Positions 20,709 through 61,700 of a stretch of DNA of 64,000 nucleotides are shown here, one piece after another. The stretch spans positions 360,001 to 424,000 of the forward strand of contig JAQGDQ010000182.1 in the NCBI GenBank assembly GCA_030141605.1, read 5' to 3'. A program made the translations under genes and the position numbers. Every line of letters begins with the position of its first letter. Positions within the stretch are counted from its first letter, which is position 1. This DNA is from Tubiluchus corallicola. Its lineage: Eukaryota; Priapulida; Priapulimorpha; Priapulimorphida; Tubiluchidae. Below the pieces are notes generated by a model. It made no database searches. It had not been told where the DNA came from and saw only the letters and a program-made list of their open reading frames with translations.

Positions 20709-23700
20709 ATGTTGCCAACATTGAAATTTATAAATCCCCGTGAGCTATTTGTCTTTGTCTGCATTCTACTGGTAAGTACTTAAAGGCTCGCTAGGTGACA
20801 TTAGATCTTTGCTAGTTAGATAAATCTGTAATTTGAAGTTTAAATGCTTCTAAAACATTATATATAAACTTCATTTATTTTAAGTGGATGCAGTGGATTG
20901 AATACACACACCATACCATACACAGACCATGGATCTGTGTATTGTATTAAGACTTATAAAGTGGATTAAAACATTAAATTGCGATAACTACATTAAAAAA
21001 CTTATTATGATGATTATGGTAAATTTATGCACTCTTTGTTTTGTTGATTTTTTATGTTTCACTTTGCAGTTGAATATTTTACATCATCCTGTAAACAGTT
21101 CTACAGTGCAGCTAACACGGGCTAATTTTGACCATGTGATAAGTAAGTAACTACAAAGCAAAGTGGAATTAACAATTGTGGTTTACAATACTCAGACCAT
21201 GCTTTTATGTATTTCATAGCCTGACTGAATGTAATCGGTATAACTTATTGTGAAGCTGAGAGTAGGAATAACTTAGCTGATTATTCTGTATTTATGATTT
21301 GGATTCAGTTAAGCTAAGCTTTTTCAGGTAAAGACTAGTGGTTAAAAGTAATAGATTTTAAAAACCATTTGTAACAACGATTTGTTTCTGCAGTCACATT
21401 TACATGAAGAAAGCTGCGTACTTGTTTTAAATGTTAGAATATTATAAATTTAAATAACTCTGTTCAAATAAATGTATTGAAAAAACATGAAAAGCATGCT
21501 AAATCTTTATTTTTTTTAATTAGCTGTGTCATTTATTTCAATGTACCAAGGCTGGCTTCCTTCATTCTATTTTTATTGTTTCTGTCATATAATATTTGTC
21601 ATAATGACATATTTTAACTGTCACTCGAAGACAATTTGCTAAAAAGCTTATTGGTATATTCAGTACATCTGAGTCTTCTATGTACATAAACTACTTTTCA
21701 TCATCATTAATATAATCGTCTTCCGAGCAATACTAATTGAGCTAGTCCTCATACATACAAGGAATTTATTTTCTATTTTATGTATTGTAGAAAATGGGAA
21801 TAAAGGCGAAATAGGGTCCGCTTTTGCAGTATATCCAATGGCTACAGATAAAATGACAATTTTTTATTCATACATATGTTAAAACTATTTAAAAGTAAAG
21901 AATCTCCAGGCGCAAGCACAGTTATGATGATCTTATACATAAAATGGCACTATAAATTAGTATATAAAAGCAATAGGCTAACATGGTTATAGTTCATCAA
22001 AAAGGTCATATTTATTTAACTAAATATAAATTAAGTACACTGTATAAAACATTATAAACGGTAATAGGGTATGGAGAGAACCATTTTTTCTAACTGATAA
22101 TCTCATTGCATGTTTTGACTTTAAATAAAGTTAAAATAAAGCAATAAATTGAAATTAGCTAATTTCTTGCTAGAAATTGACATAGACTAGTAGCACTAAG
22201 AACTTGATAATTTAGATTAAGCATTCGAAATGTTTATGACTGAGTTGGCAATTGAGAATTTTGAAACATTTTATCTTGAAAGCAGTTTGAAGTTGTGATC
22301 TCACAATTGGTTGGTTGAAACATAATGAAAAAGTCTTCAAAATTTAGGTAATCAGGCAACTATGAAATCTTATCATTCATTAATGAACTCAAACACAAAA
22401 AACAGCTAACTTCTTAAGCACAAACAAATCATGTTCTGCTTAATACCATTAAGTTTGATCGAAATATTAAATGAAATATTAAAAACATTGAATTCGTAAT
22501 CTTATAGTTCTCGTTGCCTTTTTTCAGAAAATACAGAGATAGTATTTGTCAACTTTTATGCTGACTGGTGTCGTTTTAGTCAAATACTAAATCCACTTTT
22601 CGAAGAAGCGGCAAAGAAGCTGCTGAGTGAAGAACAGGTAATTGGTTCATTGGGTAATTAGCAAGGACAATTATGTAAATGATCGAACTCATCCCAGTTA
22701 TTTGAGAGCATAGAAGTGGATACATCTAATGGCTACAACTGTTTTGCCCCATAGCAATAATTAGTTTCACATTTCCACCAAGTAACCAAGGTTCTTGTAA
22801 ACAAAATTGCAGTAATTCGTCAGATGGATTACAGATGTTTGACAGACTGTTTAGTTGATTTTTTTCTATTTTTAATATTGATTTCATTGTGTTTTTTATT
22901 ACGATTACAGGATGCACACCATAGAGCCATTTTTGGGCGAGTAAACTGTGATGAACAAAGTAAGAATACACTAGTTTAAGTGCACTAGTTTAGTTTGACA
23001 GATACATTTTGAGAGGATCCTGTAATTTATTAATTTTGTAAATTAGCTAATTATTTTTTTAATTCGCTGCACTGACAGGTTTGTTTGAATACAAATTTGC
23101 ATTTACAAATATAAAATTACATTTACAGTTAAAAAGGCATGAACTGCAAACATGATCCTAAAGCATTCATACTGGCTGCAGCTTCTTTCTTACTAATCAA
23201 GTTTGCCAAATAATCATATAAGCGCATGTGCTGATCACTTTAATATTTGTAAACTATAGTGGATTTAAACTATGCTTAAGATTTGAAAAGAGCCAGCCAG
23301 AGACTATTTGTTTCAACAAATTATCTAACATAGCCAATTTTTTGATTATAAGTGCTTCAAGATGTTTGATTAAAACTACTATGCTAAAATTATTATGCAT
23401 TAGAGGTTATACATTTAGTAAGTGTCTTCTAGTTGACTTTATCAGTTCTATGCTGCTGCTTTTATAAGTGTTGAAAGTCATTGGAACTATTTCAACACAA
23501 ACATGTAACTTGTTTGTCAATTGTAACTTTTACATTTCTGTTTTTAGCTGATGTCTGCACACAAAATCACATATCAAAATATCCAACGTTAAAACTGTAC
23601 AGAATGGGCACGATGGCAAAGCGGGAATATCGAGGTCAAAGGTCAATCGATGCACTGGCAGATCACATAAAGAAACAGTTAGAAGATCCAATTAAGGAGT

Positions 23701-26700
23701 TTGGAGATATGAAAGAGTTGGATAGCCTCGATGTAAGTAACATTTTTGTAGATTCGTTGATAGCTTAAGTAAAGTAAACGTTATTAAGTCAGTAAGTTTA
23801 TGCAGACACATAGTATTCAGGCAGGAAATATTACTGCTACTTCATTTGATTAAGGATTAAAAATTCGCTTATTGTAGCCATGCATATTATTAAACGACGT
23901 TTAAATTACACTTTAAATTATCTTGATATCAAAATCTTAAGGTTTCCTTTTTCGTGTTTTCATTGCAAGGCTTATACATGCACTCAGCATACTTTTAGTG
24001 TCTTGCCAAGATTTAATGGTAACCCTATTCAGTCATAGCTATAATAAATCGCCCGAATTTGAATATTTACCTTTTCAAATTTTTGTAATAAATTACCAAG
24101 AGTGTACTGCCGATTATGGGGATAAGTTTCATTTGACAGATAATTACTTGTTTGTTATAAGTGAATTTGGAGATTAAAGGTAGAGGGTAGAAGAGGTCAG
24201 CATCATATTAAAATTAAAATGGCTAATAGAACCAAACTTAGTAGTTAGTGCAATTTACTAGGAAAACTTCTGTTTAACTTGCATGCACATGAAAACTGAA
24301 ACATCATGCACTATGCACAATGCTATTATCTTTAAACTCAGTAATACTGTTCATCTTGAGGTTCTGTGTACCCAGTATGGAGATGAAAATCCTAAAATCG
24401 AGGTTCATTTTAACACATATGTTGACAAATTGGGATTCTATTGTATCTGTTACTCGAATATTTTGACACTTGCATTTTCTAAAATTACTGCAAATTAATG
24501 AGTGCTAATTTATAATTTAACTGATTTATCTATAGGAATTGCATACTTTCTTTTTCAGGAAAATAAAAGAACTATAGTTGGGTATTTTAAGGAGAAGTCT
24601 TCTCCGACATACAACACGTTTAGACGTGTTGCAACTGTGCTTCGCGACGATTGTGATTTCTTTGCTGGGTTTGGGTAAATAAGCATTATCCATTTTGTAA
24701 CAGATATTTATCATTCATTAGCATAAATATAAGAGATAGTTTAATTGATTTCTGATACTACTGAGCCACTTTTGTGTAGCACCTTTGTACTGGATTCTTT
24801 TGTTGCACCAGCTGCATCACATTATAGATCAAGTTGGACATCTTGCTGAAATTTTGCTTTAGTTCAATAAAAATGTTGAGCGTATTTAGCATTAGTGTAA
24901 CTTCAACATATACAAGGTGTTCCACTCGGAAGGAAAAAGCTCTATGCACAGTAGTGAATACAGATCATTGTACTTTTTGCAAATAATTCTTTGAATTATG
25001 TGTAGGGATGTAACTTGTAAGTGAACTTCTTATTTATATTTTTTCTTGTTAGATCAAATAGAGTACCCATGTATTGATATCACTGTGAAAATGCACTAAT
25101 TTGACAAACGTGGCCTGATATCTTTTTACAGTGAAACATTTTTAAGTAAGAAATGAGTTGTGCTGCTTGAACGACAGTCGCACATTATTCCGGGTACATC
25201 CAAATCACTATTATTTTCTTTAAATGGAACACTGAACTAGCAATAGCATACAGTGGAAGCAGCTTGTGCATTTTATTATAAAACTTGCACCTTGAAATGC
25301 ATTGCCGTATTTAAAATCAGATTCTGTTTTTAGGGAAGTAACTAAAGCTGAGAGAGTGGGTAGCGATAATATTGTGTACCGACCACCAAGAGTAAGTAAC
25401 ACATGAAAAGTGATATTACTCTTTCATTGTTTGAACCAAATAAAATGAAAAGTGTGAGATGAGCAATCTTGTGGTTTATTACTATGTTGTTTGTTAAAAG
25501 ATTCATTGTGGAATATTATAGCAGAACCTTAAATAAGTGCAGTCAACAGACAGCAGAAGTTTCGATCTTTGAATATTCTTTCACAAGAAATGGTTTGATG
25601 GGACAAATTCGGTGAATGGCTTGCAAAAGACAGAGAAAAATCAGCACTTGGTTTTTGTAAACAAACATTTCAAACCCGGAATCCATTCAATATATAAGCA
25701 ATTTGTTGATATGTTTTTTCTGGTAAAATGTAGTTTACTAGTAAAGTACATGTATCTCAAAACTTTTGAATTTCTGTTCTTTCAAACTTCTTAGAAGTCC
25801 TCAAGGAAAACGTAATATCTATCTTATTTCATGTTTAAATTTTATAATAATAACACAGTGCTGTTTACTTGTATTTAAAATAGAGGAAAAAACAAAATTA
25901 TAAGTAGCATACATTATTGATGATAGCTGTTTAATTTTGATGCAGTTTACAGTATAACTTGAATTTTGCTTGCTTAACTTGTTTTGCAACCAATTAGCGA
26001 ATGACCATTGTTTTGTTATATTTAGCTTGTTAGCTAATGGCATCTCTAGAATAGAGTAACACATGAGAAGTGATACTTTTTTTTCGTTGTTTGGACCAAG
26101 TAAAATGAAAAGTGTGAGATGTGTTATCTTGTGATTGCATTAATTACTTTGTTGCTTATTCGATGAAATTATTCGATGAGCTTTAAGTTGTGCTATTCAG
26201 TCTGCAGCATGCTAGTGCATACAGTCTGATAAGTAGACTTGCTTGCCTTCCTGTCTGAATTTGCAGCTTTTGATCACTGGTTTATTTTGATTTCTTATAG
26301 CATGGAAACGAAATGGTGTATGTTGGGCCACTGATAAACTTTGATAATTTAATAGCTTGGGCAACTGACAAGTGCAATCCACTTGTGAGAGAAATCACAT
26401 TTGAAAACGCTGAGGTGAGAAAAATTTCAGCTCCTAACAGCTTCTTGAAGAACATTTATGTCTTAAATTGTCATTGTGTTGTTCGAATAATGTCGGTGAC
26501 TGTTAATTCTTGTGACTTTTCTATGCTGCTTAAATTTGTTTACACTTGTAAAAAATTTTGTTGCACAGGAAATGACAGAGGAAGGATTACCGTTCATGAT
26601 CTTATTTCATGATCCTAATGATACAGCAATAGTAGAAGAATATAATAAGGTCGTATCAAGGGAATTGCTTCTTGATCGAAGTAAGTGGTCCTGTAATAAG

Positions 26701-29700
26701 TTTTTTCACAGTTCCAGTGATTAATGATGATCATAAAAAGGTCAAAGGTTAAGTGTACCAGACAGCGCATTTACACTTGACAGTGCTTTGCAGTCGTGCT
26801 ATTGTAATAGTAACATTTTTAACACCCAAGTAGAACCTTACCTAGTTCGTGCTACTAAATCACTCTACGCACAGACTAATGCCTAATTAAGTAAAGGCTA
26901 TGTTAAGCAACTGAAGTAACTGAACTGATGCAGCAAACGTGTTTGCTTTACCCACTTGTCACGTGATAGTTGTAGTTAACACGCTTTGCCGTGGTACACT
27001 TAACCTTTGAACTGCAATGACTGTGCGTGCACTCAACGAACTGTGAAAAGGCTGATTGTCTTAGATCTTAATCCATTAGGCTTAAGTCTCATAAGTTTGG
27101 TAGCATTGTGAATGTGTACAATTTTACCCAATCAGTGACAAATGACAAAAGTTTTATGTAAATTTGCTCCCATTCTGATGCTTCTATCATGTGTGATAAT
27201 AAACAGCTACAGATCTCTTTTGTGAATTTGTAACAGTACTCAAAGAATGCAAAGATTATGTAGCTATAACAAAGTTATATATCTTGAGTATTTTTTATTG
27301 AAGCTGAGTAACAGGGTCCATTCAAATATATTTGTTTTCACTATTTGTGTTTTTTATCAGCAAAGAAATGATCTCTTATTATAAACAATTGTGATTAATG
27401 AACACTTGTTTAGTTTACGGATAGGAATTTGTAAAATGAAGTAAGGACAAGTAAATAAACTTTGAGATTAGAAACAGTCACTAAAAGTAGCTGTTTAGAT
27501 GGAATTTTTTTGAATTAAATCTGACTGTACCTCCATCATTACATTAATTGCTTTCAAAGTCACTCATTAATTTAGTGCTTGCGGTTTGCAATTTATAATA
27601 AGCACTCCTAGAATTATTCATTTACAATGAAAGACGCAATGTCAGAAATTGCTGAAATGTGAATTGTTTGAGAAGTTTGCTTAACATAACAGTTTATTAA
27701 TTTGTTTAGTATTGCAAAACATTTTTGGATGAAGCTTCTTTGTAACTAGAAGTATGTACTTGACTAATAAACTAATTTATTTTCAGTTGGAAATTGATGT
27801 TTGAGGTAAATAGCATTTTCGTAGGTAAAAATAGTGAAACTATTTTCGGTATTATGTAATAGAATTTCTTGTGTTTAGATACCGTAAATTTTGTTACGGC
27901 AGACGGTAACAAGTTTTCACACCCACTTCACCATCTTGGTAAGACTTCAAAAGATCTACCATTGATAGCAATTGACAGTTTCCGACACATGTACCTCTTT
28001 CCTGACATCAAAGAACTCAGGTAAGGAAATGATCGAGTTTTTAGCCAGGTGTTAGGACAGAAATCATCAAAACTTGTATTTCCATTTTAACAGCAGGCGG
28101 CAATCTTGTTGTTTTCAAATATTTTTGAAGTAGTCAAGCTCAGTGGACTTCATGAAGTGTGGGTTTATGCATAACTGTTAACAAAAAACTCTGCATTTCT
28201 GAAAAAGTAGTTTTTGAAGCAATTTCTCACGATCATGTGGCAAGCACACTGTAACGTGGTAACAGAATGTGTTGCACATACCATGTATTGTTCTTGTGTG
28301 GCGTTGAAATTTGAAACATTCGAACATTAATGATTTGTGTGTTGCTTCTGCATATGATGAACAAAGAAATTTAAGTGCTAAAAGAATATAATATAGCTGG
28401 TTGTTAAAAAGCTGGAGCATGTTAACTCAGAGGATTTGATTATGTGCAATGTATCTTTGGCTGTCGTCATTTGTTTGCACTTTAGAAAATGTTACAGTAA
28501 CCCAATCCATTTTTGTAGGTGTACTGAGCACTTCGTTTAGCACTGTGTATACGATTTAACCTTTTGTTATAATACTGAACATTGTTTGTTAATGTGTGGC
28601 TTCTGTGTACATTTATATAGTATGTAACAAATAACAATTAAACTCCGGGGAAAAAACTTGGCAGATTAATGTTTTGTATTCATTTAGTATTCCAGGTCGA
28701 CTGAAGCAATTTGTAGCTGATTTACATTCAGGGAAATTACATCGCGAATTCCATCATGGGCCAGATCCGACTCAAGCGCCGCAAAGCAAGGTGATAAATA
28801 AGTTCCCAGTTTTTTACTGCATGCCTTATAAAATAAGTAATCATTTTGGAAAAGTTTTGTTTGATTTGTGCGTCTTAGGTTGCATGCTACGTTAAAAAAG
28901 GACATACTAAAATCACGTATCAGAAAAGAAGCACAGTCTGCGTATGAGAGTGCTGATCCTTGTGTGTTAGTTTTGCATTTTGTTGCACTTATGCGTGTGT
29001 CATAAAGAGAACATGCTACAGTCAAGTCCCAGTAAAGGTCCAAAATATTTTTTATATTAAGGGTGCTATTGTGCTATCCATTGCATACATTTTTGCTAAC
29101 TCATCATAAGTTATTTCTAATGCAAAATGAAATTAGTCAACGTCTGGAGGCTTTCAGAGTTTTCTCTTGATTAGTGAATATAACTTAAGCTTGTTTAATG
29201 TCTGTTTCCATAAGTACGAGCCACAAAATTATATCAGTATGTTGTCAGTTAGTTTAGAAGTAAGTCTTACAAGTAAGAGGGTTAGTGGTGCCAGCGAGTT
29301 TGTCAAGTGTCGCTTTCTACTGGTTTGGTATTACTTTGGATACCTGTAAACGAGGCCTAATTGTTTACAATAGGAAGACAAAGGCTTTTTGGAAATCAAG
29401 AGTGTCTGTGTTCGCATGGCTTTTAAGTCTATGCAGCTGACTCATTACCTCAACAATAGGCTTAGCTCTGATACTGCATGTACAACAGGCAACAGGTGAA
29501 GAGTGTCTAATTGGGACGGGCCACAGCAGAAGCAGAAATCATACTACAAGTGTTTCTTAATATTAAACTAATATTACCGGGGCTTTGGGAAAACGTCTGA
29601 CAAAACTGGGTTTTGTAATAATGAGTTCTGTAGTAAACGTATGTGGTTACATAGGTTCTGTTATAACCTCGGCAAGGAGATAATAAAAGCATCGTACTAC

Positions 29701-31018
29701 TGAGATTTTCGTTATAAGCCAAATTGTATTACCAAAATTTGATTGTACCTATTTGCAGACAAGCTTCATCTACTTGACATGCCTACAGTGTAGTTACAAA
29801 GTGTAGCCAAAGCTAGTCTTTAACGTGTGTGTGCTAAGAGTTCTTTACATCGGCATTGCTTGATAGTATTGCAACTATTGCCACTTGCAAGTTTCCTATT
29901 TTGGCCGATCTACTATTTCGGTTAATCCACTATTCGGGGCGCCTCTGCTCAACATACTTTTTTGAAATATACCAGAAAGTTTTTAACGTGATTTTTCAGT
30001 TGCGAATTTTTTGAATTTTTAAATTGTGAACTTAGAAATTGTCTAGTTTTCTTGTTTCATTGTTAACGCCATCCAACAGCTACATATTGCAATTTCGCTT
30101 TTTAGACCGTGTACCAGGCCATGAAAAAGGGGACAAGTGGTGATGTCAGTCCTATTTGAGTTTGTGCTATTATTTGAACTTCTAAATCTTAGCTCCTATT
30201 TAAATACATGTGTATGAAACATTATGATATACATTTTTGAGGTAAAATACTTGTTTTCGATTACAAGTAAAGAATGAATTATAGTCTAAAAATAGTCCCA
30301 TTTTCTTTTAAAAAATTGCTTTGGGTTAAAGAATCTTTATGGTAACTAGGATTAGATTTTTTTAGTGTGCATTTTACTGCATGTTTATGGGCAGCATGTA
30401 ATTTCAGGCGCAAACGCAAAAGTACACGGATCCCCCAGAATCGACATTTCGGAAGTTGCAGCCGTCCAGAACTCGCTATACGCTACTCCGAGATGAGTTG
30501 TGATGAAAAGTTTTGTGTAAATGAAAATAGGTGTGCATGTATTAATGGTTACTTTTCATGCATGGGTATTTGCTGTGCAAATTTAAAAAAGACGTTAGCT
30601 AGCTGGTAATTTACATCAATACATTTTTACAAGTGCCGTTTACTGCTTATCACTGACTTCTGTGGATATTATCAATACTCATATGCTAATATCGATTTCA
30701 TATCATCTGGCTTTCTTATGTAGTAAAAACCAGGTTTTAATTTTTGCGTAGGATGTAATGTAAATAATGTCCAGCTTCATATTTGTTTTCTAAATGGATC
30801 CAAATTGTCTAGCATCCTGTAATGATCTTGGGAACAAACCTCCCACTCACGTGTGCCTGCTAGATTAATTGTAGTGTATCTTGGAATAATTATGGATTTT
30901 TTTCTAGCTCAATCTTGCAGATGACCCACCTGATCATTTGACTAGTCCACCGGAGTCAACATTCAAAAAGTTGCAACCTTCCCGGACCCGTTACACAATA
31001 CTACATGATGAATTTTAG
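20709..31018 (+). CDS. ERP44: ERp44 (TXNDC4), ER/Golgi thioredoxin-family chaperone with two alternative last exons
   Basis: Constant exons: 20709-20771, 21070-21142, 22528-22637, 22911-22959, 23548-23732, 24559-24674, 25334-25391, 26301-26414, 26569-26680, 27879-28020, 28688-28790; then either 30408-30503 or 30908-31018. All junctions are GT-AG with matching phases. The product is 406 or 411 aa (human 406). An N-terminal hydrophobic signal (FVFVCILL) is followed by a thioredoxin-like a domain with the family's single-cysteine CRFS motif (C60-S63), RISKYPTL-like KYPTLKLY, b and b' domains, and the His-containing tail HREFHHGPDP. Known role: pH-dependent covalent capture of unassembled secretory clients and of Ero1 in the early secretory pathway, returned by KDEL receptors. 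Two cysteines present in the human b' domain are Gly and Leu here. Confidence 0.97.
25396..25505 (+). repeat. intronic direct repeat, copy 1
   Basis: Begins GTAACACATGAAAAGTGATA right after the donor of ERp44 exon 7 and includes AAAATGAAAAGTGTGAGATG. It matches 26056-26165 with scattered differences. Both copies are in the same ERp44 intron, about 660 bp apart. No open frame. Confidence 0.7.
26056..26165 (+). repeat. intronic direct repeat, copy 2
   Basis: Begins GTAACACATGAGAAGTGATA and shares AAAATGAAAAGTGTGAGATG with copy 1 at 25396. Divergence suggests an old local duplication. Confidence 0.7.
26742..27010. mobile_element. 269-bp MITE with perfect 19-bp TIRs
   Basis: Left end TCAAAGGTTAAGTGTACCA at 26742-26760 and its exact complement at 26992-27010. 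It lies in the ERp44 intron between exons 9 and 10. A TTAA sits inside each TIR, which recalls piggyBac targets but is internal to the repeat, so the superfamily is open. No coding capacity. Confidence 0.7.
30408..30503 (+). CDS. ERP44: ERp44 last exon, variant A (ends RDEL)
   Basis: The acceptor ATTTCAG ends at 30407. The exon is phase 0, fitting the exon ending at 28790, and encodes 31 residues starting AQTQKYTDPPESTF and ending TLLRDEL, then TGA at 30501-30503. RDEL is the retrieval signal used by vertebrate ERp44. No obvious AATAAA occurs before variant B, so a transcript ending here may share the downstream poly(A) site. The other open frame over this segment is out of frame with the gene. 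Confidence 0.88.
   Translation, partial: AQTQKYTDPPESTFRKLQPSRTRYTLLRDEL
30908..31018 (+). CDS. ERP44: ERp44 last exon, variant B (ends HDEF)
   Basis: The acceptor TTTTTTTCTAG ends at 30907. The exon is also phase 0 and encodes 36 residues starting LNLADDPPDHLTSPPESTF and ending TILHDEF, then TAG at 31016-31018. It aligns with variant A over the last 24 codons: 19 residues are identical and 14 of those 19 codons differ synonymously. The final Phe replaces the Leu of canonical KDEL-type signals, so retrieval efficiency is uncertain. Confidence 0.88.
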   Translation, partial: LNLADDPPDHLTSPPESTFKKLQPSRTRYTILHDEF

Positions 31019-31548
31019 CACTACAACCCTGTACAAATGTTGAATGTTACTCTTCAGCCTTCCATGTGAAAACTGCATTTTGTGATATTTTTCAACAGAC
31101 ATTTGTTAAAATTTTGTAACATTTTCTGGTTTTACATTGTTGCAACAAGTTGTTTTCAAAACAGTGAAAGGTATTTCTTTGCATATTCTTTTCGTCTCTT
31201 GATTTTTTAAATTATTGTTTTCATCATTATGCGCAAGGAAAAACCTCTTGCTGCAGCCTTATATTGTATGCGTGATTATAGTAAAATCTGACTTATGTCT
31301 TAGAACCCTAGATGGCTGTTAACTAGCTTTATGTGATTGCTGGATTATTGTTTACATACCCTTCATAATATGTAGTAGACACTTTTTTTATGACAATGGC
31401 AGGTTTTAGTTATTATCTTGTATATAAGAACCACATGGTATTTGATAGGTTTTTTTTGAAATCAAATTGACATTTTTAAGCTTGGTCCATTTGTAAGGGA
31501 AATGGTTAATTTATTTTGTTGTGTGCTGTTACATTTAGCACACGAATT

Positions 31549-31554
31549 AATAAA
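31549..31554 (+). terminator. poly(A) signal of ERp44
   Basis: AATAAA about 530 nt after the variant B stop codon, the first canonical hexamer on the plus strand that I saw after that exon. An AT-rich palindromic patch (TATTATAATATATATTATAA region, near 31595-31625) follows. Confidence 0.5.
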
Positions 31555-32029: not shown

Positions 32030-32890
32030 ATTTGTGACTTCCGCGACTATCTGAAAATTTCCATTTCCAATAGTCATGAAATATACTCCAAGTTTCCCAA
32101 ATAGTCGCAAAACATTTGCGGATATTTTCCATTGCCGCCAAAAGGTGCACAGAAATGTCGCAAATTATTCTCGATGTTCGTTAACAATTTTAAAATCTGC
32201 AAAAACTTGAACATTGAAGTTGGAAAAGCTGCGAGTTGGAGAACCTCAGTTGTCTCGCACTTGTCTCTGTGAAAATTCCTTGAAATGGTCATCAAATGAT
32301 TTGCACATGATATACTTTTGCGAGCGTCATGCAACATTTGCCATGTCATAAGTGTTGCAGAAGTAGCCAAACGTGAACAAACTTCTGTGGCACGAATTTC
32401 AGGAGATATTCTTGTGATTTTTGCTCAAGAACAAAGCTCTAAATTTGCAGGAATGTGGCGAAAATCGAGTAAAATTAGGTAAGATTTTACTTGAATTATT
32501 ATCGACAAAACAGTCACAGGAATTTCTTGGTGACTGTTGAACTTAGAAAATATTCGACAGTCACAAAAAAATCCCGCCCCTGTGAAACCCTTTAGGATTT
32601 TGCTTATATAAGAATGCAATATTCAGTTCTAAGAAAACATTAATTTATTAAGAAGAGGCAATGACTGTTATTATATTTCACAAACCAGCATAATTCTGGT
32701 TCGTGAAATATAATAACAGTCATTTCCTCTTCTTAATAAATTAATGTTTCGTGTAAAGTCCTATGTAATTTTACTCGAGTTTCATCACATTTCTGCAAAT
32801 TTAGAGCTTTTTTCTTGAACGAAAATCACAAGAATATCTCCCGAAATTCGTTGCAACAGAAGTTTGCTCACGTTTGACCACTTCTTTAAT
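32030..32890. repeat. large fold-back (palindromic) repeat
   Basis: Outer arms: 32352-32490 is the inverted partner of about 32758-32888 (shared blocks CAAACGTGA.CAAACTTCTG, GAGATATTCTTGTGATTTT, AAGCTCTAAATTTGCAG). Nested inside is a tighter hairpin at 32636-32748. The left part (32030-32350) and 32540-32600 share weaker inverted similarity around TTTGTGACT. It looks like a foldback-type element or two nested insertions. No transposase reading frame. Confidence 0.65.
32636..32748. repeat. 46-bp inverted repeat hairpin, 45/46 paired
   Basis: Arm 32636-32681 pairs with 32703-32748 with one mismatch. The 21-nt loop contains a further AACCAG/CTGGTT stem, so nearly the whole 113 nt can fold. It sits within the larger fold-back repeat. 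Confidence 0.9.
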
Positions 32891-34084: not shown

Positions 34085-37000
34085 TTAGCGAGTTCTTCTA
34101 CGTTTGCTTGGACTATCATGGTAATCATATTCAGCAGATTTTGCCGATATGCGAACGCGGGAACTCGTACGTTGGGGCAACTGATCTCGATCTCCAGCTG
34201 GAGATGCAATGGGTCGCTTTCTTGAAGTGGACTTTACAGAGGTCATAACATCATTTTCTACGTGCACATGTGGACTTTGCATCCCCAGCTCTTTGTCTAT
34301 GTGCACACGTGGACTTTGCATCCCTAGCTCTTTGTCTAATTCTGCAAGACGCTGTTCTGCATCTCTGCATTCATTCATTTTATCTTTTATGCCACTTGTT
34401 TTTTCGCGATTAAAATGCTCATTCAGTTCTACCCTTGCTTGTTCGTGCTTTTCCATGGTAACTTTTAAACTTGTCAAAAGTTTTAGTTTTTTATCTAAGA
34501 TGTCAACCTCAGCTGATTGGGATGCACTGAATACAGAACCCTTCAAAGCTTCTAAAGACCAAGCTCTGTTGGTGTTTCCACCAAACTTTCCATTACTTCG
34601 TATTCGTTCTCCATCTCTGGTTAATAAAGTTGGACAGTATGTGTATTTGACAATTTCTGATCTGTATGCGGTGGCATCTTCTAGCGTATCTAGGATAATT
34701 GTGTCACCAAGTAACATCCCAAATACTGTTCTACATGCATTTTCATCTTCTGTGAATTTTAAAAGTTCTCTAGCATAAACAGGTGATCCCTTTGGCCTCC
34801 AACTGGGACGATATTTTACATGAGGCAGTTCTTTCTTCCAGTCTGGTAAAGTTTTCTTCCATATGAAATCCAGAGCAAGTAGCTGTTGCTTACCCCCCAT
34901 TTGTTTATGCAGTTCCATTGCTTTTCTTGTCGTCCTTGTTACGATACAGTCCATGTCACCAGACATATGCCAAGACAGAACTCTGGCAATTTCATCATTG
35001 GTTATCTCTGCCAAGTGTGCAATCCGACCTAACACTTCTTTGTCTCTGGGGGCAGCTGGCAAAGTACACCGTCGTCGTGGCTTTTTAGCAAGCATGGACT
35101 GCTCTTTTGTTTTTGCTTGAATGGTTTGTTCAGTTGCAGAAAGAGAGTTCATCTCAGTTGCGCGAATGCCTAAAGCTCTCAGTTCCGATTTTACCTGGTT
35201 TTCCATTGCATTGACTTCTCTTACAGCAACCAGTAACTCATTGCCAAGTTGTTTGGAAGTGCCAAAAAGCGATTTATAACTTTTAATAGCACTCACCAGA
35301 CGATCACGTTCTTTTGATATGAATGCTATCCTGGCTTGTTTCTTTGCATCATTGCAAAAAATGAATGAAATATCTAGAGGTGCAATTTCCTGAACATTAA
35401 TCTTTGATTCCGTAACAGTGCACCTCAATATATACTGTCCATCTTTGCCCGGCGAATTTTCAGCAACCATAATACCATTCAGTTTAGCAGTCCCATTGAT
35501 GAGAGGAATGCCTACATTTCCACTGACAAAAATATCGGGCAGTTCTGTGACATCATTATTGCTCAAAGTGTCTATCGAAATTTTTCCAGCTATATTTTCT
35601 CCTGCTTTATTGCCAAATTTATCCCGTAATTCTATGGATAGGTTATTGATCAAGGTCCTCGAAACGCTGTTCTTAGTATTTGATACGGATATTGTGCCAA
35701 CATAAGCAGCAGTCTCGAGTTTAACAGGTTTTGACGGTTTCACTGTCAAAACAATTTCTTTGGATTTTACAACAGCTGTATTAGTCGAATACTCAAAAAT
35801 AATCTTATAAGCACCAGACTTTTCTGGGGCTGTCCGTCCACTGAAACAAAAGTAGTCCTTTGTATCGTCTTTCTGTCTATCTGGAAATAAAATATGGTCT
35901 TTCGATTTGACAGGAGCATCAGTATTGATGAGCTTCATCTTCAGACATGCTGCTTTTGCATCTTTTATTGTACTGTTGTCTTCTGCTAACATGGAAACAA
36001 TAAAATCAGGCAGTATTTCGGCTGCTGTACATGTGCCTAACTTAGTATGCTTTACATCAAGTCGGACAGGTTTATTCAAATCTGGTTGAATAACTACCTT
36101 TAGTGTTGGTCCCAATATAGTCGTCCTATGATAAAATGCTTTTGGCACAATCTCATACATTCCAGTCTGTGCAGCGATTGTCATCTTACCAAAGTTGGCT
36201 TGTCCATTTTTGTTTGTTTTTACTATTTGTGGTGCTGGAGTTAATTTTAATCCATTATCTTTGGTAAGTTGGACCCTAACATCTGCCTCATTGGAAGGAT
36301 TTCCTTGCTCATCACACAGCTGTACCACCAAAGATTTCTGAGACAATGAATCACTGTGCACTACCAATGGTTCACCTTGCGGCCAGCCTAGCACAGATAA
36401 TGAAGCTGGTGGCCCAGCAACCACATTCAATCGTACATAGTCAGTAAGGTCTCTCCACATTATGCAAACTTCCTTTGGACCGAGTGTGACATCAGTAAAC
36501 CTCAATCCTGAAATGTTAAAACTCGAAGATTGACCAAGGGCTCTCACTGTTTCTTCCACAACCAACCCCTCTGCAACAATAGATAAATCTTTCAAAATAC
36601 CATGTGGCAACTTTTTGACTGGGTTGCCAAACTTGTCCATAATAGTCACTAAAATATCTGATGACATTTTGTTATCTAAGCTAACAGTATTATCACCACT
36701 ACACACACACTTCATGTTACATGGATGACCTGGAACGGGCTTAATGGTGAACGAAAATTCAATATCATGAATATTCTGAAGGGAAATGTTACAATATTTC
36801 GTATCCAAAACAGAGTTGGGGACTTTGATGTCAGGAAGCCTACACTGTAGCAATTCAGCAGTTGGTGCTTTGGGCACCCAGCTTAATTTGAATCGAGCAG
36901 CTAACTTGTTATCAATCGGCACTGTTTTTCCAGCTTCATTAGTCAAGACGAAACTAATGCCAGACAAAAATGTGCCAGCTTCGACGAAAATGTCTTTCCC

Positions 37001-40000
37001 ATTGACAAGTTCTATTGTTTTATCACCATCCATGTACGAAACATTAATTGACGTCACAGAGTTACTAGGTAGAACTTTTATAGTTTTTTCAACAGGCTGA
37101 ACATTTCTGCATCCAGGCAAGTCAATTCTAGCTTTAACCACTTCGCTGTCTTTAATTTTTTTTAGCAGCAGTGGTGAACCGGTTAGTTTTCCTCTGCCAG
37201 TCATTGAGCAGTCTAAGAAATATGTAGGCAATTCTGCATTGCCCAGAGCTCCACTAAATTGTGCAGCCACAGTAAGTTTTGGTTGGCACGTCAAATTTTT
37301 TGATTTGTCATAAACCTCAACATTCATGACAACAGGCAACCCATTTTCAATTTCCAAATCACCATCAGGAAAAACAATGAGAGATTCAGGTGGTCCAGGA
37401 GTCAACCGTATCTTAAGCGTTTGAGAATCTTCCTCTAAATCAGGCATTTTTACTACCAAGCTAAAATTTTTCCCGGTGCTTAAAGGAACACTTCCCAGAG
37501 CAATAACATCTTTTATGATTAAAGATTTACCTTTAACCAAAACACCACCATAACTCAAATTCAAGCCAGTTGCTTCCACAGTTGGCTTTATGTTCGGAGG
37601 TGGTTTTGTTGGATTTCCAAACAAATCTTGAAACTCAACAGGTATGCTAAATGGTAAGCCAATTCGAAAAGGTCCGTCTAAAAGCCCAACAACAAATCTG
37701 TTTGCTTCAGCTTCTGTCACACAAAACTTGTAAGTGAGAGAAGGAAGGTCTTTTCCAGCAAATGTCGTGCAATTGTTTTCATTTGCAACACTAATGACGA
37801 CCTGTAAAATTAGTGTGTGCATTCCTAATTGACGTATGTTTTCCATCTTACGGAACCAATAAGGCCATGCCTTACCATGTTGACTGACGTGCCATATTAT
37901 GAGTTCGTCGCCAGACGGAGAGTGCCAAATAATTTTCAATTCAACTAGCAACTTTCCCTTTGACTGGGCAGTAGAGCCAGGCAACTTGTTTATCACTTGG
38001 CCTTTTTTATTGGCTATTTCGACTCTCATGTCACCTATAGGCTGCCCGGCACAACGCTTTTCACCATCTGTTATGCTGTTCCCTTCTGGCCATGTTACAT
38101 TTATTTTATCTGGTAGTTTATGTTCTTCATCTTCAATACACTTTTTGATCACGCTTGAACTGGCAGTTCGATCAAGTTTAGAAAGAGGAAAGCATTTCAC
38201 TTCATCATAAATGCACCTTGGTTCCAGTTGTATTTCAAATTCACCTCCCGTTGCAAAGATCTCCCCATCGTACTCTCCAAACAAGAAGAATCGGTTAACT
38301 GTTCCATATACATGAGGTAGAGTTTTAAATGTTTTAATCAACTGTCCCTTCTCAAATCGTTTATAATCCCACTCTATTTTTGTGAATACCGTCCAAGGCG
38401 ACTGCTTGTTTTTTGGTTGTTCAGGCCTAGCCACTGTGCCTTTGTTACCGTAGAATTTCACCTGTTTGTCATGTTTTTCATGGCACTCTTTCAACCAATC
38501 AGTGAAAAGTTTTTCGATGTATCCCCGCCGTTCCTGTCCATCAATCACTCCAACAAAGCTAGTCTTTTTATCTCTCAACTGAAGTTCCAAATCTAAGAAA
38601 GTTAGTTTATTAGTAGACACCTGGAAATCACTGTTTGCCCACAGTACACCAGATATTCTCCTATAGCATTCCTCTGGAATAGCACCTGATTTCTTTGGAG
38701 GACAACACCAATCAAACTCCTGAATGGTAGTATAGGGAATTGCCCGCCCATTCCAAAAGCAGTCAAAAATGGGGCGTCTTCCTCTTGCCGTAAGCGAGGA
38801 GTAATCACAATCATATTCAAAGTCGTCACTCAAGTGTCCTTGGTCTGAACTATCGCTAGGATAAGTCTCACGATCATACAGAAAAGGATGGTACCTTAAC
38901 ATTCCTTCCACATGCCCAGTTCCCTCGATCTTAGCTCGAAATTCAAACTCACTGGCAGAAGTCCTTATAAACTGTGTCTGCATATCATTCTCTACGTCAC
39001 GAAGGTTCACAGTTTTTGTTTTGTCATTTTTTGTCTGCATTGTTATAATTATGTCGATAACATTGTTCTCTGATACAGTTTTTTTCAAAGGCTCTACATT
39101 TCCATGTGGACCATGCAGATAATAATGATAAATATTTGCCAACTGTGTACACCACTGGTTGAAGTCATACTTCAAGTAACGAACATGTTCTAATGGGATG
39201 TCAGTAATCACTACAGTGGTAAAATGGTCTTTACCAACTTCACATGCGATGACTTCTTTAATGCCCTCTGCCACATTTGATGATAAATGTGACATATCAG
39301 CTGGCTTGCGGTTTCTAATAAAACCCTCGTAAATGGCTTCCCTATTTTTATCCTTAGCCTCGAAATCTTCTTTGGACATGGTCAATTCGTGAACGTCTTT
39401 CGAGTTGGCAGGTTTGGAAATCATTCTCGTAGCCATGCCAATATAAAACACCGCTTGCTTGCCACCAACACCAAAATAAGAAATATCACTATTTAAAGAG
39501 CGAGGAATCCTTTCATCAACATTGCCATTTTTAATTGGCTGTTCCTTGTGACGGTTGAACTTTGATAACCTGTAGATTGCCCACTGGCTTAACTGTTTAG
39601 ATGTCATTCCCTTGCCATTATCAATCACACATATGGCATTGTTTTGCATCTGTCGGTCACTCCCAAAGAACAGCTTGACATCAATAGTTCTCGGACCTTG
39701 ATTCAGAGCTGTTGCAGATAAAGAGTTGTCTATCAGCTCAGCAATAGCAAACGGAAGAGGATTTTGCCCTGCAGAGGCATAGTATTCATACACACCACTC
39801 TTGACTAGAGTGTCATAATGTGGCAGGAATTCGACTCTTTCTTTAGCCTGTCCAGGTAAATCTTGATTGATGTCACTAAGAATGTACAGAGTAGTTCCAT
39901 CCTCAACAAGAGTCTGGTATTCCTTGTCTGAGTTAATCTGTTCTCGGCCTGCAAGCAAAACCAGAAAATATTCATTGTAGAGTAATAGTGCAACATGTGT

Positions 40001-45658: not shown

Positions 45659-46393
45659 CTATTTCTTGTATTTTTCATGAATAGCAAATTTAGTCATTGG
45701 TCTACCAGACACACCACATGTCCCTATACCAACTCTTCCACCAGGATTTTCTGGAGTTGCAAAAATACTTTTCTTAACACGCCCCTTTTTTGTTTTCGCA
45801 AAAGCCTTGGCATTAAACTCTTGCCATCGTCCCTTCTCCTTCTCTCTTTCTTCCTCAATGGCTTTAAGTCTTTGAATTTTCTTCTGTGCTTTCTTGCGTT
45901 TATATTCGCGCTGTGCTGCAATCATTTCTTTCTTAGATGATGGTTTCTCAGCTTTGCTATTTGTCTGAGCAACATCGTGCATGACTGGCTTTAATAATGA
46001 CAGTTTGGTTACATCTGTATTACCATACTCACAAAATGTTACAGTACAATCACCGTCAGCAGTAATATCATCAATTTCAGCCATATAGTACTGACCGTCT
46101 TTAGAATATACAGCCATGCACATGTCCCCATGTTTCCAGTCATGTACAATAGTGTTTGGTGTATCAACTGATGTTGAATTAACTGATGTACTTGCTTCCA
46201 GAAATAATGAATCGTTAGAAGGCTCCTCTGCTTTTGTATTCACTAAGTCAGCTGTAAGATTTATTACTTCCTGAAGATCTTTTTTTAGTTTTAGCAGATC
46301 TTCATTCCCGGGATCGGACATCAAAGCAGCATCGACTTGCTGCAGTTGTAGCTTATAGTTTGTTAAATTTGTAAAAAGATCCTCGTCAGCCAT
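45659..46393 (-). CDS. SMNDC1: SMNDC1 (SPF30), Tudor-domain splicing factor, uninterrupted coding region
   Basis: A single 244-aa frame with ATG at 46393 and TAG at 45659-45661 (human 238 aa). The N-terminal helical part starts MADEDLFTNLTNYK. The Tudor domain is at about residues 85-135 (WKHGDMCMAVYSKDGQYY, FCEYGNTDV), with the aromatic residues expected for symmetric dimethylarginine binding. A Lys/Arg/Glu-rich helix follows, and the C-terminus has the conserved KKGRVKKSIFATPENPGGRVG. Known role: nuclear spliceosome factor needed for U4/U5/U6 tri-snRNP joining. The human coding region is split by introns; here it is not. A pyrimidine-poor TTTAG lies just upstream of the ATG, so a 5' UTR intron is possible. 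The full conserved length argues against a decaying pseudogene. Confidence 0.96.
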   Translation of the reverse strand: MADEDLFTNLTNYKLQLQQVDAALMSDPGNEDLLKLKKDLQEVINLTADLVNTKAEEPSNDSLFLEASTSVNSTSVDTPNTIVHDWKHGDMCMAVYSKDGQYYMAEIDDITADGDCTVTFCEYGNTDVTKLSLLKPVMHDVAQTNSKAEKPSSKKEMIAAQREYKRKKAQKKIQRLKAIEEEREKEKGRWQEFNAKAFAKTKKGRVKKSIFATPENPGGRVGIGTCGVSGRPMTKFAIHEKYKK

Positions 46394-55786: not shown

Positions 55787-58700
55787 ATGTCCGAAGTTGT
55801 CACAGCCAACCATAACCGCAGCTCTTGGCAGAATTCTCAGAAAGCCAAGCTTGGAAGATGTGGTACTGCTGATGCTAAGCCTTGCACTCAAAGTAATGAT
55901 AACAATGGTAGGTGTTATGTGCAATTTATAGAGAAAATATTGCAGAATGCAGTTTGTTTTTCAAAATACAATTTACATCATAGTTTATTTTATGCACTAC
56001 TACTTTAAACATTTGTTTTTCAGTTGCCTGCATCGTGACATTTCATGATTTGATATTGTACTGGTTCACTATTATTTCTATAATTGTAGAAAATTTTCTA
56101 AACATATAACAAAATAATTATTGCATAATACAATCTTTCTTAAAGTCAGACTAAGCCCTTACTATAATAAAAGCTTTTTAAACTTGAAATCCTGCTGATG
56201 TAGTCTTACAGTCTGATGTAGGGATGTTAAACAATACAAATTTGGTGCTGCGATAACAATATTATACCATGCTTTTTTCCAACAATACGATAATGATAAG
56301 CTATTGTCTAGACAATATAATACCATGTGATAAATTATTTCAAACGATAAAAATGATACTGTAGTTAGACAATTTATGCAATAACGGAAAAGTATCATTA
56401 ATAATTAAAATTATTAAGTGCTTTAGTGCATTCAGTGCTGTGTACTTGAATGCTAGTTATGAAACACAAGTTTGTTTGTTTGTAAATAAGTAAGCTGCGA
56501 CACATAAACATATTATTGCCATAAAAACATTTATCTATGTGAGCTGCATATGACCGGGAAAGTGACACTAAAATATGGTACAGTGTATTTAATATACTCG
56601 CATCATTATCAAAGTGTATAAATGGGTCACTATACTTTGCCAATATGTTTCAGACTGAAGATAACTGTTATTGCCAGGTGAAATGGTTCTGACAAGCTTA
56701 TAATTTTAAATAATTCTTTTTATCCACTTCTTTGCATAATTGCTGTAAATAAATAGAGAAGTGACACGATTTTATAAGCAGTGATACATGCCAAATTCGA
56801 CACGATAACAATGTTCCCAGAATATTATTCGATATGATAATGGTAAAAACAAATTTTGCATATCGATAATCATATTCGTTAACATCCCTTGTCTGATGCG
56901 TATACATCCTGTCACTAAGATAAATAGCTGGCCATAATGGTAGATGAAATGGTGCAAAAATAGTTGTGCTAGTGGTCACATATCCATTTACTGATCAGGC
57001 TCAATTATCCTTAATTAAAGTGACCGCATTGTGACTGCTCAGTAGTGTACTCGCTCGCTCCAAGGCAACTATTATGATGACATTTCTTGCAAATAACAAT
57101 TAGTTTGTTCTTTCCACTTGCTAACCCACATGTTGAGAGCCTCCATTGACTGTTGATGACTTTATGCCACAATATCATAAAATTTTAAGATTAAATCGAG
57201 TGTGTAGAGCCACATCGTGTTCTGCTGTCAATTTTTTAAATTATATGACTGTGTGCTCTATTTTACATGAAAATGTCAGGATGTTGGATGCAAAAAGCAA
57301 GAAATATATTTATCAGTGCTGCCTTATCAAAGAAACAGTTAGATATTTGCCACACTTTAAGTATGCTATTTTTATATCTCATTGCGTATATTAGCATATT
57401 GCAGTTACGTAGTTTTCAGAATATCACATAATGTCAGTGAGCTAAAAAAACATTAGTGGTTAAACTGTTTTGAAACACTGAGATTGGCAGCACATGTGAA
57501 ACAACAGGTGCTCATGTTTAAATGCTGAAATTCCATTTATTGATGGCTTCGCAGAGTAATCTGCAACACAGCATTAAAACATTTCATTTTTTTAAATTTT
57601 GACTCAAAGCTACATACTCGATGCCTAAGGTCATGTTGAAGCCTCATCTATGTAAGCTAAAGTTTCTATGGATAAAACAGAATTAGTAAAGACTATTTAG
57701 AGAGGCCCCCATTTTATGGGCACGTATGTTATCCTCTGTATACAAAACCAGTAACTAAGCTTTCAGCATCACTATTTACTATTTTCACTTACCCCATGCT
57801 GACACTCTATGCTTATGGTAGATCAAAATATTTAAAACTGAGTCTTACAGCTAATCTTTTCTTTTAACAACTATCATTTTATTATATGTGAAATAGGTTT
57901 AGTTTGCTGGTTAGATTTTTGCTCATTATTACTGAGCACAAGTTCTAACAGGCTAAAATTAGCATCATTGTTTTTGCAACCTTTATATAGTTTGTGAGGA
58001 TAAATATGACCTCATATCTGATTATCCTGAATAAGCAATCAAAAAAACCATTTGTACCATTGAATGTAGAATTATGTGGGCTACACATGTGCCTCCTTTT
58101 TTCTACACTTAATTGGCTGTGCTGTTAAGATTGTGACGCAAGCGATGATACACAGACTATGTTTGTGCCCCTCCTGCATCGAGGACTAAGCTCTGCTTAT
58201 AGGAATTAACATTTAAAGAGGATCTTGTGGTTGATCTTCTTTCTACACTATTTTATGCAGATTCACCTGATGACTGCAAAGCACTGGACAACGTTACCGG
58301 CACCCGAGTCAACAAAATACGTAGCATGTTCCAAAACATGACGCCAGCTCCGCCTGGTGGCGGTGAGATGCACGCGCCTGTTAGCAATCATCCGTATCAT
58401 CATCCTCATCATATGAATCATCACTCACGAGGTGACCACCTGTTTCATGCACCACCTGCTGAGGAGAAAAGAAACGGGGAAAATAACTGGGATAAGGAAA
58501 AGTATGTAATAAAGTATATTTGTATCTTTTGTTTTTTTAGCATGATGGTTTTTACTACAGGCATCAAATACTAATAATTTCAACATTATTGCCTCTGCTC
58601 TTACTGAATTTACTTAAAGAAAGACCAAGGCTGCTCTATACATTCTATACATTTATCACTATTACAATACTACCACCTTTCTGTTCCTTATGCCCTATTC

Positions 58701-61700
58701 AATACGGCCTATTATTATTGATATGTTCCAAACCAAACAGGTTTCTGCTTAATTATACATGACTAGCTCCTGTCTTTAAAAGCAGTGTTATTGAATGTCT
58801 AATGATGGTATAAACTCACAATTAATTAAATTCACCTTTTCAACTTTTTTGTATTTTCTTGGTATCAAAATTTAATTAATTGTGGGTTTGCACCATCGTT
58901 AATAGTAATGCTGATACTAAGATTATAATAATTAGACTTTGTCTTGTTTTTAAGCTTCTGGAACTAAATGTATTTTTGAATTTTGAAGCCATATTTGTGC
59001 AGGGTATAACCAGTTTTCCTGGGCAGGGTGACTTATTGTTGGTACCCTTCATAACAATTACAATAATACAGATGATCTCTTACACTGTCATCTTTTATTA
59101 TAACTAACTTATGTTTGCATAATGCTAATTTCTAAAAAAGTGGGTTTTAAATTCTTTTATTTGATTATTCTTTGAATTAAACGTGTTGTAATTCTAGAAC
59201 AACTACGCACAATCCCGATGTTAAATTGTTGGAATCTCTCAACCATGTCAGCCGCTTCAAGTCGACTAGGGCGATGTTCGAGAAGTTGGAGCAGCAGAGC
59301 CGGGCCAACACAAACTATCGCTCGAGTCCGCCAATCAAACGACATTTTGTAATTCCTAAGCCACAGAGATCACCGCGCTCTTCTCGTTCGTCATCGCCCA
59401 CCAGCGATCGTGATTTTGTGAGTCCAGAGCGCACGATACAGCGAGTTGATAATGATATTACAAATGGCAAACCAGAGCTGTTAAACTCAACTAAAAGCTC
59501 AGTCGACAATTCTTCCACAGATGCTGACATAAAAAGGTACATTTAATATCAGTATATAAGTTAAAGTGAGTTTTTTGTATGTCTCAGAAAAGTCCTTGCA
59601 GAATGGAGAACATAGCCAGCTAAGTTTGCTAAATAGGTAGCCTAGGAACCTCGACAATGGTTTTATCATATGATTACTAATAATTGCAAAATTGTTAATA
59701 GAATTTGATCAGTTTTGTAACACTCAGAAATGTTATGGTGCATAGTTATGAGTTGTGTATGCTTCTGTGTCAGCACTGTGGCAGGCAACTGTTTATCATG
59801 GCTGATGGTATGTTCCAAATTCCAAAAATAATATAATCTTTCGACATTGAATGAGTATATTGACATACATCATCTTCCTTTTTAGAAACAAGCTGAAGCC
59901 TAAAAACAACAAGCCTGTTGCAATACCAAAATCTCACAATGCTGTTAGTTCAAAGGTTGACGATAACAAGTCGAAGCCTGCCCTTAATCTGCCTTACAGT
60001 GAGGTGAAAGGCGGCAGAATTACTGGCCAAACGCCGAGAAATGCTACACCGTACAAACCTTTGAAGTCAAGGGGTATGTCTTAAAAACTATGTTTTACTG
60101 TTCAATAACATTATTACGATAAATAGTGTTTAGGTGACGTGACGCTCACAAATTCGGATTGAAAGGCGGCAGAATTACTGGCCAAACGCCGAGAAATGCT
60201 ACACCGTACAAACCTTTGAACTCAAGGGGTATGTCTTAAAAACTATGTTTTACTGTTCAATAACATTATTACGATAAATAGTGTTTAGGTGACGTGATTA
60301 GCTGAGTGGTCACAGTTTGTTGTGCTCGGTATCTGAGCTTAAGAACAGTAGGCTTGGTAAGTGAATGGAATAGGTGACCCACAGGAAATTGTTTCTGGAT
60401 GGTTTCATTTATTATCACGCTGGTAGCCAGTTAATTGTTTTGCTGCTCAAGGGAAGATTCGGGAAGATGCACCCAAACACACTTTATTGTTTCATCTTAG
60501 AGAGTCATCTTTGATAATAGTCAGCTTTCTTAAAATAAAAATGATAGCCAACACCCTCATGAACAAAGACCTAGCTTTTATTCAGACACAATGTCACACC
60601 TACAATCGACCTAAATAAAAGTACAGTGTGAAAAATAATCATACAAAAATTAACAATATGACAAACAATCAAACAAGACAAATACTAAATACTAAACGTT
60701 TGTGCAAACGTTTCTCTTATTACCACCCACAGGCATTGGTCAGAATGAATCTGTGGGAGTAACATGACTTTATTTTTTCTGTTATTTGGCTTTGTATCAC
60801 ACTATATGTAAGTTTACAAGCTTTTCCTTGAATGGCTACTATATAATCATTCAAGACCAAGAGTATCACCAAGTAACTTATCAACATTATTTATGAAAGT
60901 GCAGAAGTATTTTGTTTTTTTTTAGCTAAAACGAGTTGAAAACACCTTATGATCTGCGAGTGCCTATTAGCTTCAGTTCAGATGTTTATGATGTCCATTG
61001 AAAAAGTTTTATTAGTGTCAGACTCTTTTTAAATGAATTTTGTCACTGCCCAAGTGCAGCAGCCAATTATTGACTGCTTTATGATAATTACCATTTGATG
61101 CCTGTGGTAGGGCTGATAGAGGTGATTTTCAAGATGAAATTATGGGGTTCAATGAAAATTAGGGAAACTGAACAATAACAGGGAAAAACGGAAAATAATT
61201 ACAAGTGAAAGCATGTTAGCAATTTAATCAAATGGATGTATTTTTTAAATATCACTAATGTGATTATGAAATGTTTCAGCATTATAAATATTAATATCGG
61301 TCCATTTTTAATTGCAGATAATGGTTGGTGGCAGCGTGGGAGTAAGCTAGATGATACCAATATTAAACCATCATCGAGAAAAGTGTGTGCCGACGATGAT
61401 TTGAGTAAAGACATAGATAATGAAAAAGATGTCAAGAAGCGGCCGTCATCCATAGACATTAATAAAAAATTTACTGGGCCAACCAAACGAGCAGCCAAGC
61501 TAGATAGTGTAGACAGTAAACAAGAGGTATATAGCGAAATTTCTTGATTATTTGTAGTATAAACTACTAAAGAATTATGTTCTCCGAGATACCCTTTTGT
61601 ACAAAAGGCATTGCAGTATGTACTGTAAATTACGGGTCAGTTTTGGACATTCCAGTTCAATTGTACCTGTGAATTTGGGTTCAACTGCACAAATTCGGAT

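What the first reader, a model, noticed from the sequence alone, without database searches (positions are those of the whole stretch)
30408..31018. ERp44 has two alternative last exons encoding RDEL and HDEF ER-retrieval tails
Seen: after the constant exon ending at 28790 (phase 0) there are two exons, each with a good acceptor, each phase 0 and each encoding the ERp44 C-terminal tail with its own stop. Variant A ends RDEL; variant B ends HDEF. Over the 24 alignable codons 19 residues are identical, and 14 of these 19 codons differ only synonymously. So both copies appear to have been kept under protein-level selection for a long time; neither looks like a decaying duplicate. Established: KDEL receptors read the last four residues and favour Leu at the end, and in human ERp44 the C-tail also gates the client-binding site. 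Inference: alternative splicing may switch ERp44 between efficient retrieval (RDEL) and a weaker or different fate (HDEF), with a slightly different gating tail. I know of no described case in ERp44.
Basis: partly seen in the sequence, partly recalled or inferred. Interest (0 to 1): 0.85.

Follow-up and report, generated by a model that had tools for sequence, protein, structure and literature searches.

The report
ERp44 gene with two retrieval tails
One animal gene for the quality-control chaperone ERp44 carries two alternative endings, each with a different ER-return address (RDEL or HDEF), and the DNA shows that evolution has kept both, so splicing may set where this chaperone works in the secretory pathway.

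Summary
The window holds one complete ERp44 gene (11 constant exons, 20709-28790, +) followed by two homologous, in-phase last exons: A (30408-30503, RDEL, 406-aa protein) and B (30908-31018, HDEF, 411 aa). Over the last 24 codons 19 residues are identical; third positions are near random (7 of 24 identical) while first and second are kept (41 of 48; Fisher p = 3.4e-6); 0 of 100,000 random-substitution trials kept 19 residues. Both match the human tail independently, and their flanks are unalike: an old duplication with both copies under protein-level selection. No second ERp44 locus was found in the held assembly. The same genome has a KDEL receptor with a canonical pocket and a calumenin ending HDEF, so HDEF is native there. 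Published reporters show HDEF is a working but leakier signal than HDEL; whether it is weaker than RDEL is unsettled, because His at -4 raises affinity. Most likely: alternative last exons giving two ERp44 isoforms with the same client gate but different retrieval codes and linker lengths. No RNA or related genome was available, and exon A's acceptor scores poorly: regulated use, or caution.

The parts
20709..28790 (+). Constant part of the ERp44 gene: 11 exons (20709-20771, 21070-21142, 22528-22637, 22911-22959, 23548-23732, 24559-24674, 25334-25391, 26301-26414, 26569-26680, 27879-28020, 28688-28790), 375 codons, signal peptide region, CRFS active site, His cluster
   Evidence: Open frame across all junctions, all ten internal introns GT-AG; phmmer to human ERp44 2r2j E 7.3e-142; Pfam Thioredoxin and Thioredoxin_6
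28688..28790 (+). Last constant exon E11, ends in phase 0 with donor AAG|GTGATA; encodes LHREFHHGPDPT, which carries the residues aligned with human His328 and His332
   Evidence: alignment to 2r2j; donor 4.53 bits, weak for this gene
30408..30503 (+). Alternative last exon A: linker, gate segment, C-terminal RDEL, TGA stop
   Evidence: in-frame stop 9 bases upstream of the acceptor, so the frame cannot extend upstream; weak acceptor -3.31 bits
30908..31018 (+). Alternative last exon B: 5-residue longer linker, gate segment, C-terminal HDEF, TAG stop
   Evidence: acceptor 4.28 bits; a rival acceptor 13 bases downstream (exon start 30921) scores 7.07 but is out of frame
31549..31554 (+). Only canonical poly(A) signal AATAAA between 30401 and 31700; could serve both transcripts
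   Evidence: variant hexamers AATGAA 30520, AATACA 30618 and AGTAAA 30722 lie between A and B

Best explanation
The last coding exon of ERp44 was duplicated in tandem long ago, and both copies are kept as alternative last exons. Splicing E11 (28790) to 30408 makes the RDEL form; skipping A and splicing to 30908 makes the HDEF form. Both can end at the one AATAAA at 31549, so no separate poly(A) site is needed. Both proteins keep the same Trx-like body, His cluster and client-gating segment, but differ in linker length and in the four residues read by the KDEL receptor. The HDEF form would carry a calumenin-type, leakier retrieval tail and so cycle further along the Golgi or partly escape, while the RDEL form is the human-like form. 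Shown: the exon pair, the frames, selection on both copies, the native use of HDEF by calumenin in the same genome, and a canonical KDEL receptor. Inferred: use of both exons in mRNA, the direction of the retrieval difference, and tissue or state control.
For: Gene model and tails. Third positions 7 of 24 identical, first and second 41 of 48; 0 of 100,000 null trials reach 19 identities. Flanking introns and 3' sequence are not alike (28% and 28.5% ungapped identity over 200 bases; the one significant blastn match is the coding stretch). Copies evolve evenly against human: A = human, B differs at 1 site; B = human, A differs at 0; both share 4 differences from human, of 19. No other ERp44-like tail among the 27 matches in G000. 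HDEF-ending calumenin at G000:C841. KDEL receptor with R5, D9, H12, D50, E117, W120, Y158, R159, W166, R169 present, numbered by counting the exons found (roles). HDEF crystallised with the receptor and retained in cells less well than HDEL but better than HDEA (PMC7617889 passages). Tandem duplicated terminal exons chosen mutually exclusively are known in other genes (PMC9013439 passages).
Against: No transcript data. Exon A's acceptor is no better than 39.7% of AGs in the window, and at least nine other AGs in 28830-31100 score at or above B's (small scoring matrix from ten sites). The out-of-frame acceptor at 30921 scores above B's own. A donor at 30605 (7.0 bits) after A's stop could make A a spliced exon with its stop 102 bases before a junction, a possible decay target. 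Affinity data predict that HDEF is not weaker than RDEL at the receptor. No docking-type pairing of the introns stood out (2 inverted pairs).
Confidence: 0.58

Rival explanations
1. Both isoforms are made, but the retrieval codes are balanced: His at -4 gains affinity and Phe at -1 loses it, so HDEF is about as good as RDEL or even better at low abundance. What matters is the 5-residue longer, more acidic linker of B (gate opening, zinc response) or which cells make which form.
For: HDEL 0.24 uM, RDEL 2.71 uM; TAEHDEF against TAEHDEL 23 against 18 uM (PMC7617889, PMC8248988 passages). Linker from PDPT to PPES is 14 residues in A and in human, 19 in B.
Against: Reporters: HDEF retained less than HDEL and HDEL less than KDEL or RDEL. 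Linkers are disordered-looking and unalike between A, B and human, which does not suggest fine tuning.
Confidence: 0.3
2. Only one exon is used in bulk; the other is a rare or regulatory event (for example A as a weak or decay-prone exon).
For: A's acceptor is weak and a downstream donor at 30605 exists.
Against: Protein-level constraint on both copies with third positions near saturation, and an even rate against human, are not expected of an unused or non-coding-role exon.
Confidence: 0.1
3. Assembly chimera of two alleles or paralogues.
For: Draft assembly of 2344 contigs.
Against: Both exons lie 404 bases apart in one contig that matches itself once; no second ERp44 locus; third positions far too diverged for alleles.
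Confidence: 0.02

Closest known systems
Human ERp44 (ERP44, PDIA10)
   Same: Same three Trx-like regions, CRFS site, His cluster region, PPES gate start (Pro353 in human), 406 aa for form A, RDEL tail
   Different: Described with one tail, RDEL; here a second last exon gives HDEF. Human ends LLRDRDEL, here LLRDEL or ILHDEF
Calumenin (CREC family), tail HDEF
   Same: Same last four residues as form B; in this genome too
   Different: EF-hand protein, unrelated body; its HDEF comes from one exon, no second tail copy seen in the 3 kb fetched
Tandem duplicated terminal exons chosen mutually exclusively, such as Drosophila pip and PGRP-LC
   Same: Tandem homologous last exons, old and maintained (PMC9013439 passages)
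   Different: Those pairs are not described in the passages seen as switching an ER-retrieval signal; competing RNA structures reported for PGRP-LC were not seen here
Immunoglobulin mu, membrane or secreted ends
   Same: Last-exon choice sets fate in the secretory pathway (PMC3893805 passage)
   Different: There a membrane anchor is exchanged for a tailpiece; the ends are not two receptor-read retrieval codes

Membership tests
ERp44 | Whole-length similarity and CRFS active-site motif | tested here: met
   phmmer E 7.3e-142 to 2r2j over query 5-378; WCRFSQ aligned
ERp44 | Three Trx-like domains | tested here: met
   Thioredoxin 33-141 and Thioredoxin_6 170-352; Thioredoxin_6 taken as the b and b' regions from knowledge
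ERp44 | Zinc-binding His cluster (human 299, 328, 332) | tested here: met
   FRHMY and LHREFHH conserved in the alignment; role from PMC6363758 passages; numbering by my count
ERp44 | C-tail gate with Pro353 | tested here: met
   PPES present in A and B; role
ERp44 | C-terminal RDEL | tested here: met
   Met by form A; form B ends HDEF instead
KDEL-receptor ligands | A receptor with the canonical pocket in the same genome | tested here: met
KDEL-receptor ligands | Binding and retrieval of these two tails | not testable with these tools
   Only reporters with BiP context and TAE peptides in the papers seen
Alternative tandem duplicated last exons | Homologous, adjacent, same phase, each with stop | tested here: met
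Alternative tandem duplicated last exons | Both used, one per transcript | not testable with these tools
   No RNA data held
Alternative tandem duplicated last exons | Plausible splice acceptors on both | tested here: inconclusive
   B in range, A weak
Alternative tandem duplicated last exons | Both copies conserved in related species | not testable with these tools
   Scans of viral contigs and genome contigs gave no relative, as expected of collections without animal genomes

The most novel reading that the evidence does not exclude
A splicing-set retrieval dial: one gene makes a short-loop (RDEL) and a long-loop or partly exported (HDEF) form of the same thiol quality-control chaperone, so a cell can move the checkpoint for disulfide-linked cargo along the Golgi by last-exon choice, with the calumenin code borrowed as the leaky address.
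Probability: 0.35. Interest if true: 0.78.

Novelty: new variant of a known kind. Interest (0 to 1): 0.62.

Why it matters
ERp44 polices cargo between ER and Golgi, and its position depends on how well the KDEL receptor returns it. A natural pair of tails on one gene, kept by selection, would be an evolutionary experiment on what the four-letter code is for, and makes it testable whether retrieval strength is a regulated trait and not only a fixed property of each resident protein. It also shows HDEF, known from calumenin, on a second and unrelated protein family.

Tried and rejected
Assembly chimera or decaying copy: rejected on codon pattern, single locus and even rates. A third tail copy in the window: none found. 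Separate poly(A) site for A: no AATAAA or ATTAAA between A and B, only variant hexamers. Docking-selector RNA pairing: two inverted pairs, 13 and 15 nt, one arm of one inside B, not convincing. Upstream extension of either exon: blocked by in-frame stops. Related genomes: two scans, viral contigs and genome contigs, no confirmed relative. Paper searches for ERp44 splice variants or tail switching: read as listings (the listed rows only; one search was swamped by 23,356 papers and says nothing); no described case seen, in open-access papers only. Structure prediction was not run, because its rule allows only proteins that the DNA gives without joining and this one is spliced.

Full report
Observation. 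I rebuilt the gene from the + strand. Eleven constant exons (20709 to 28790) join into 375 open codons with GT-AG introns throughout and leave phase 0 at 28790. The protein matches human ERp44 at E 7.3e-142 and carries Thioredoxin and Thioredoxin_6 domains. Two exons follow: A, 30408-30503, ending RDEL (406 aa in all, as human ERp44), and B, 30908-31018, ending HDEF (411 aa).

Is it more than chance? In the last 24 codons 19 residues are identical but only 5 codons are. Identity by codon position is 20, 21 and 7 of 24, so third positions are close to random while the protein is held (Fisher p = 3.4e-6). Random placement of the 24 differences never gave more than 17 identical residues in 100,000 trials (mean 9.9). 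dN is about 0.14; dS is beyond estimation by Nei-Gojobori and about 7.5 by the likelihood method, which for 24 codons only means saturated (two other methods failed). The flanks are not alike. Each tail alone finds the human tail (E 5.8e-8 and 8.0e-8). Against human, over 19 sites, A and B share four differences, A alone agrees with human at one site, B alone at none: the split between A and B seems later than the split from vertebrates or has been kept in step, and neither copy runs faster. Three sequences give only a weak date.

One locus. A search of the window's assembly (343.5 Mb, 2344 contigs) with the ERp44 protein gave 27 matches, 11 on this gene, and the other 16 at 41% identity or less to other Trx-fold genes; none of these covers the tail. 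An allele or paralogue mix-up is therefore very unlikely.

Splicing. With a matrix from the ten other acceptors of the gene, B scores 4.28 bits (others 2.58 to 11.4) and A -3.31, a score that 39.7% of AGs in the window reach. The E11 donor is also on the weak side (4.53; the other ten 4.39 to 10.46). Weak sites are common at regulated exons (general knowledge) but they also mean that the splice sites alone would not have picked out A; its coding conservation does. An out-of-frame acceptor 13 bases into B (7.07) would give a short end without retrieval signal (MTHLII). The one AATAAA (31549) lies after B; only variant hexamers lie between A and B. The simplest layout is one poly(A) site and a choice of acceptor. 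A donor at 30605 could instead join A to B and put A's stop 102 bases before a junction; I cannot exclude that.

What the tails do. Published work, seen as passages: human ERp44's C-tail covers the client site and the RDEL; zinc at the His cluster moves Pro353 and releases both (PMC6363758). All these elements are in the shared body or in both last exons. The differences are the linker from PDPT to PPES (14 residues in A and human, 19 in B) and the last four residues. HDEF has been crystallised in the KDEL receptor; HDEF reporters are retained less well than HDEL and better than HDEA, and HDEF competes less with endogenous ERp44, BiP and PDI than HDEL does (PMC7617889). RDEL binds tenfold weaker than HDEL (2.71 against 0.24 uM) yet RDEL and KDEL reporters are retained better than HDEL (PMC8248988). 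So retention order by chaining the two papers is RDEL above HDEL above HDEF, while affinity would put HDEF near HDEL and above RDEL. The direction of the switch is thus likely but not settled. No passage seen compares HDEF with RDEL directly.

The same genome. A KDEL receptor gene on C663, the only one matched, has, by counting its exons, the residues named in those papers: R5, D9, H12, D50, E117, W120, Y158, R159, W166, R169. Calumenin on C841 ends LLRHDEF and a second CREC-type gene on C246 ends AIHEEL. HDEF is thus a tail this organism uses elsewhere, on a protein that in human cells is partly ER-held and partly secreted (PMC3325945 passages).

Known kinds. Alternative tandem last exons are a known kind (pip and PGRP-LC, PMC9013439 passages), tandem duplicated exons tend to be old and tissue-specific (PMC9741552 passages), and neither of these two papers names ERP44 in the main text. 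I found no description of two retrieval tails on ERp44 in the searches, which cover open-access papers and were read as listings. I therefore call it a new variant of a known kind: a known splicing layout applied to a KDEL-receptor code.

Limits. No RNA, no related animal genome, no species name, no binding test for these exact tails. The selection result is the solid part; the cell biology is inference.

Noticed in passing
window 34085-39958, - strand: SMCHD1-like gene (Pfam SMCHD1_S5 E 9e-67, HATPase_c_3, SMC_hinge) in one open frame of 1957 codons, without visible introns beside an intron-rich neighbour; contains a 39-base repeat at 34257-34338
   Followed up: partly
window 45659-46393, - strand: 244-codon frame with SMN_Tudor domain, probably SMNDC1/SPF30-like (name recalled; domain)
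   Followed up: partly
window 60005-60297: Tandem copy of a 155-base unit at 99% identity (1.9 copies), recent or an assembly effect; nearby frames look neurabin-like to me, but Pfam gave no match for the two frames tried, 58227-58571 and 59226-59543
   Followed up: partly
window about 32635-32746: Imperfect inverted repeat by eye, perhaps a small hairpin element; an ungapped check matched only 21 of 50 bases
   Followed up: partly
L010 (G000:C2059:27000-29300): PDI-like gene in one open frame of 493 codons, ending KTEL
   Followed up: no
window 30921: Out-of-frame acceptor inside exon B that scores above B's own; would give an ERp44 without retrieval tail
   Followed up: partly
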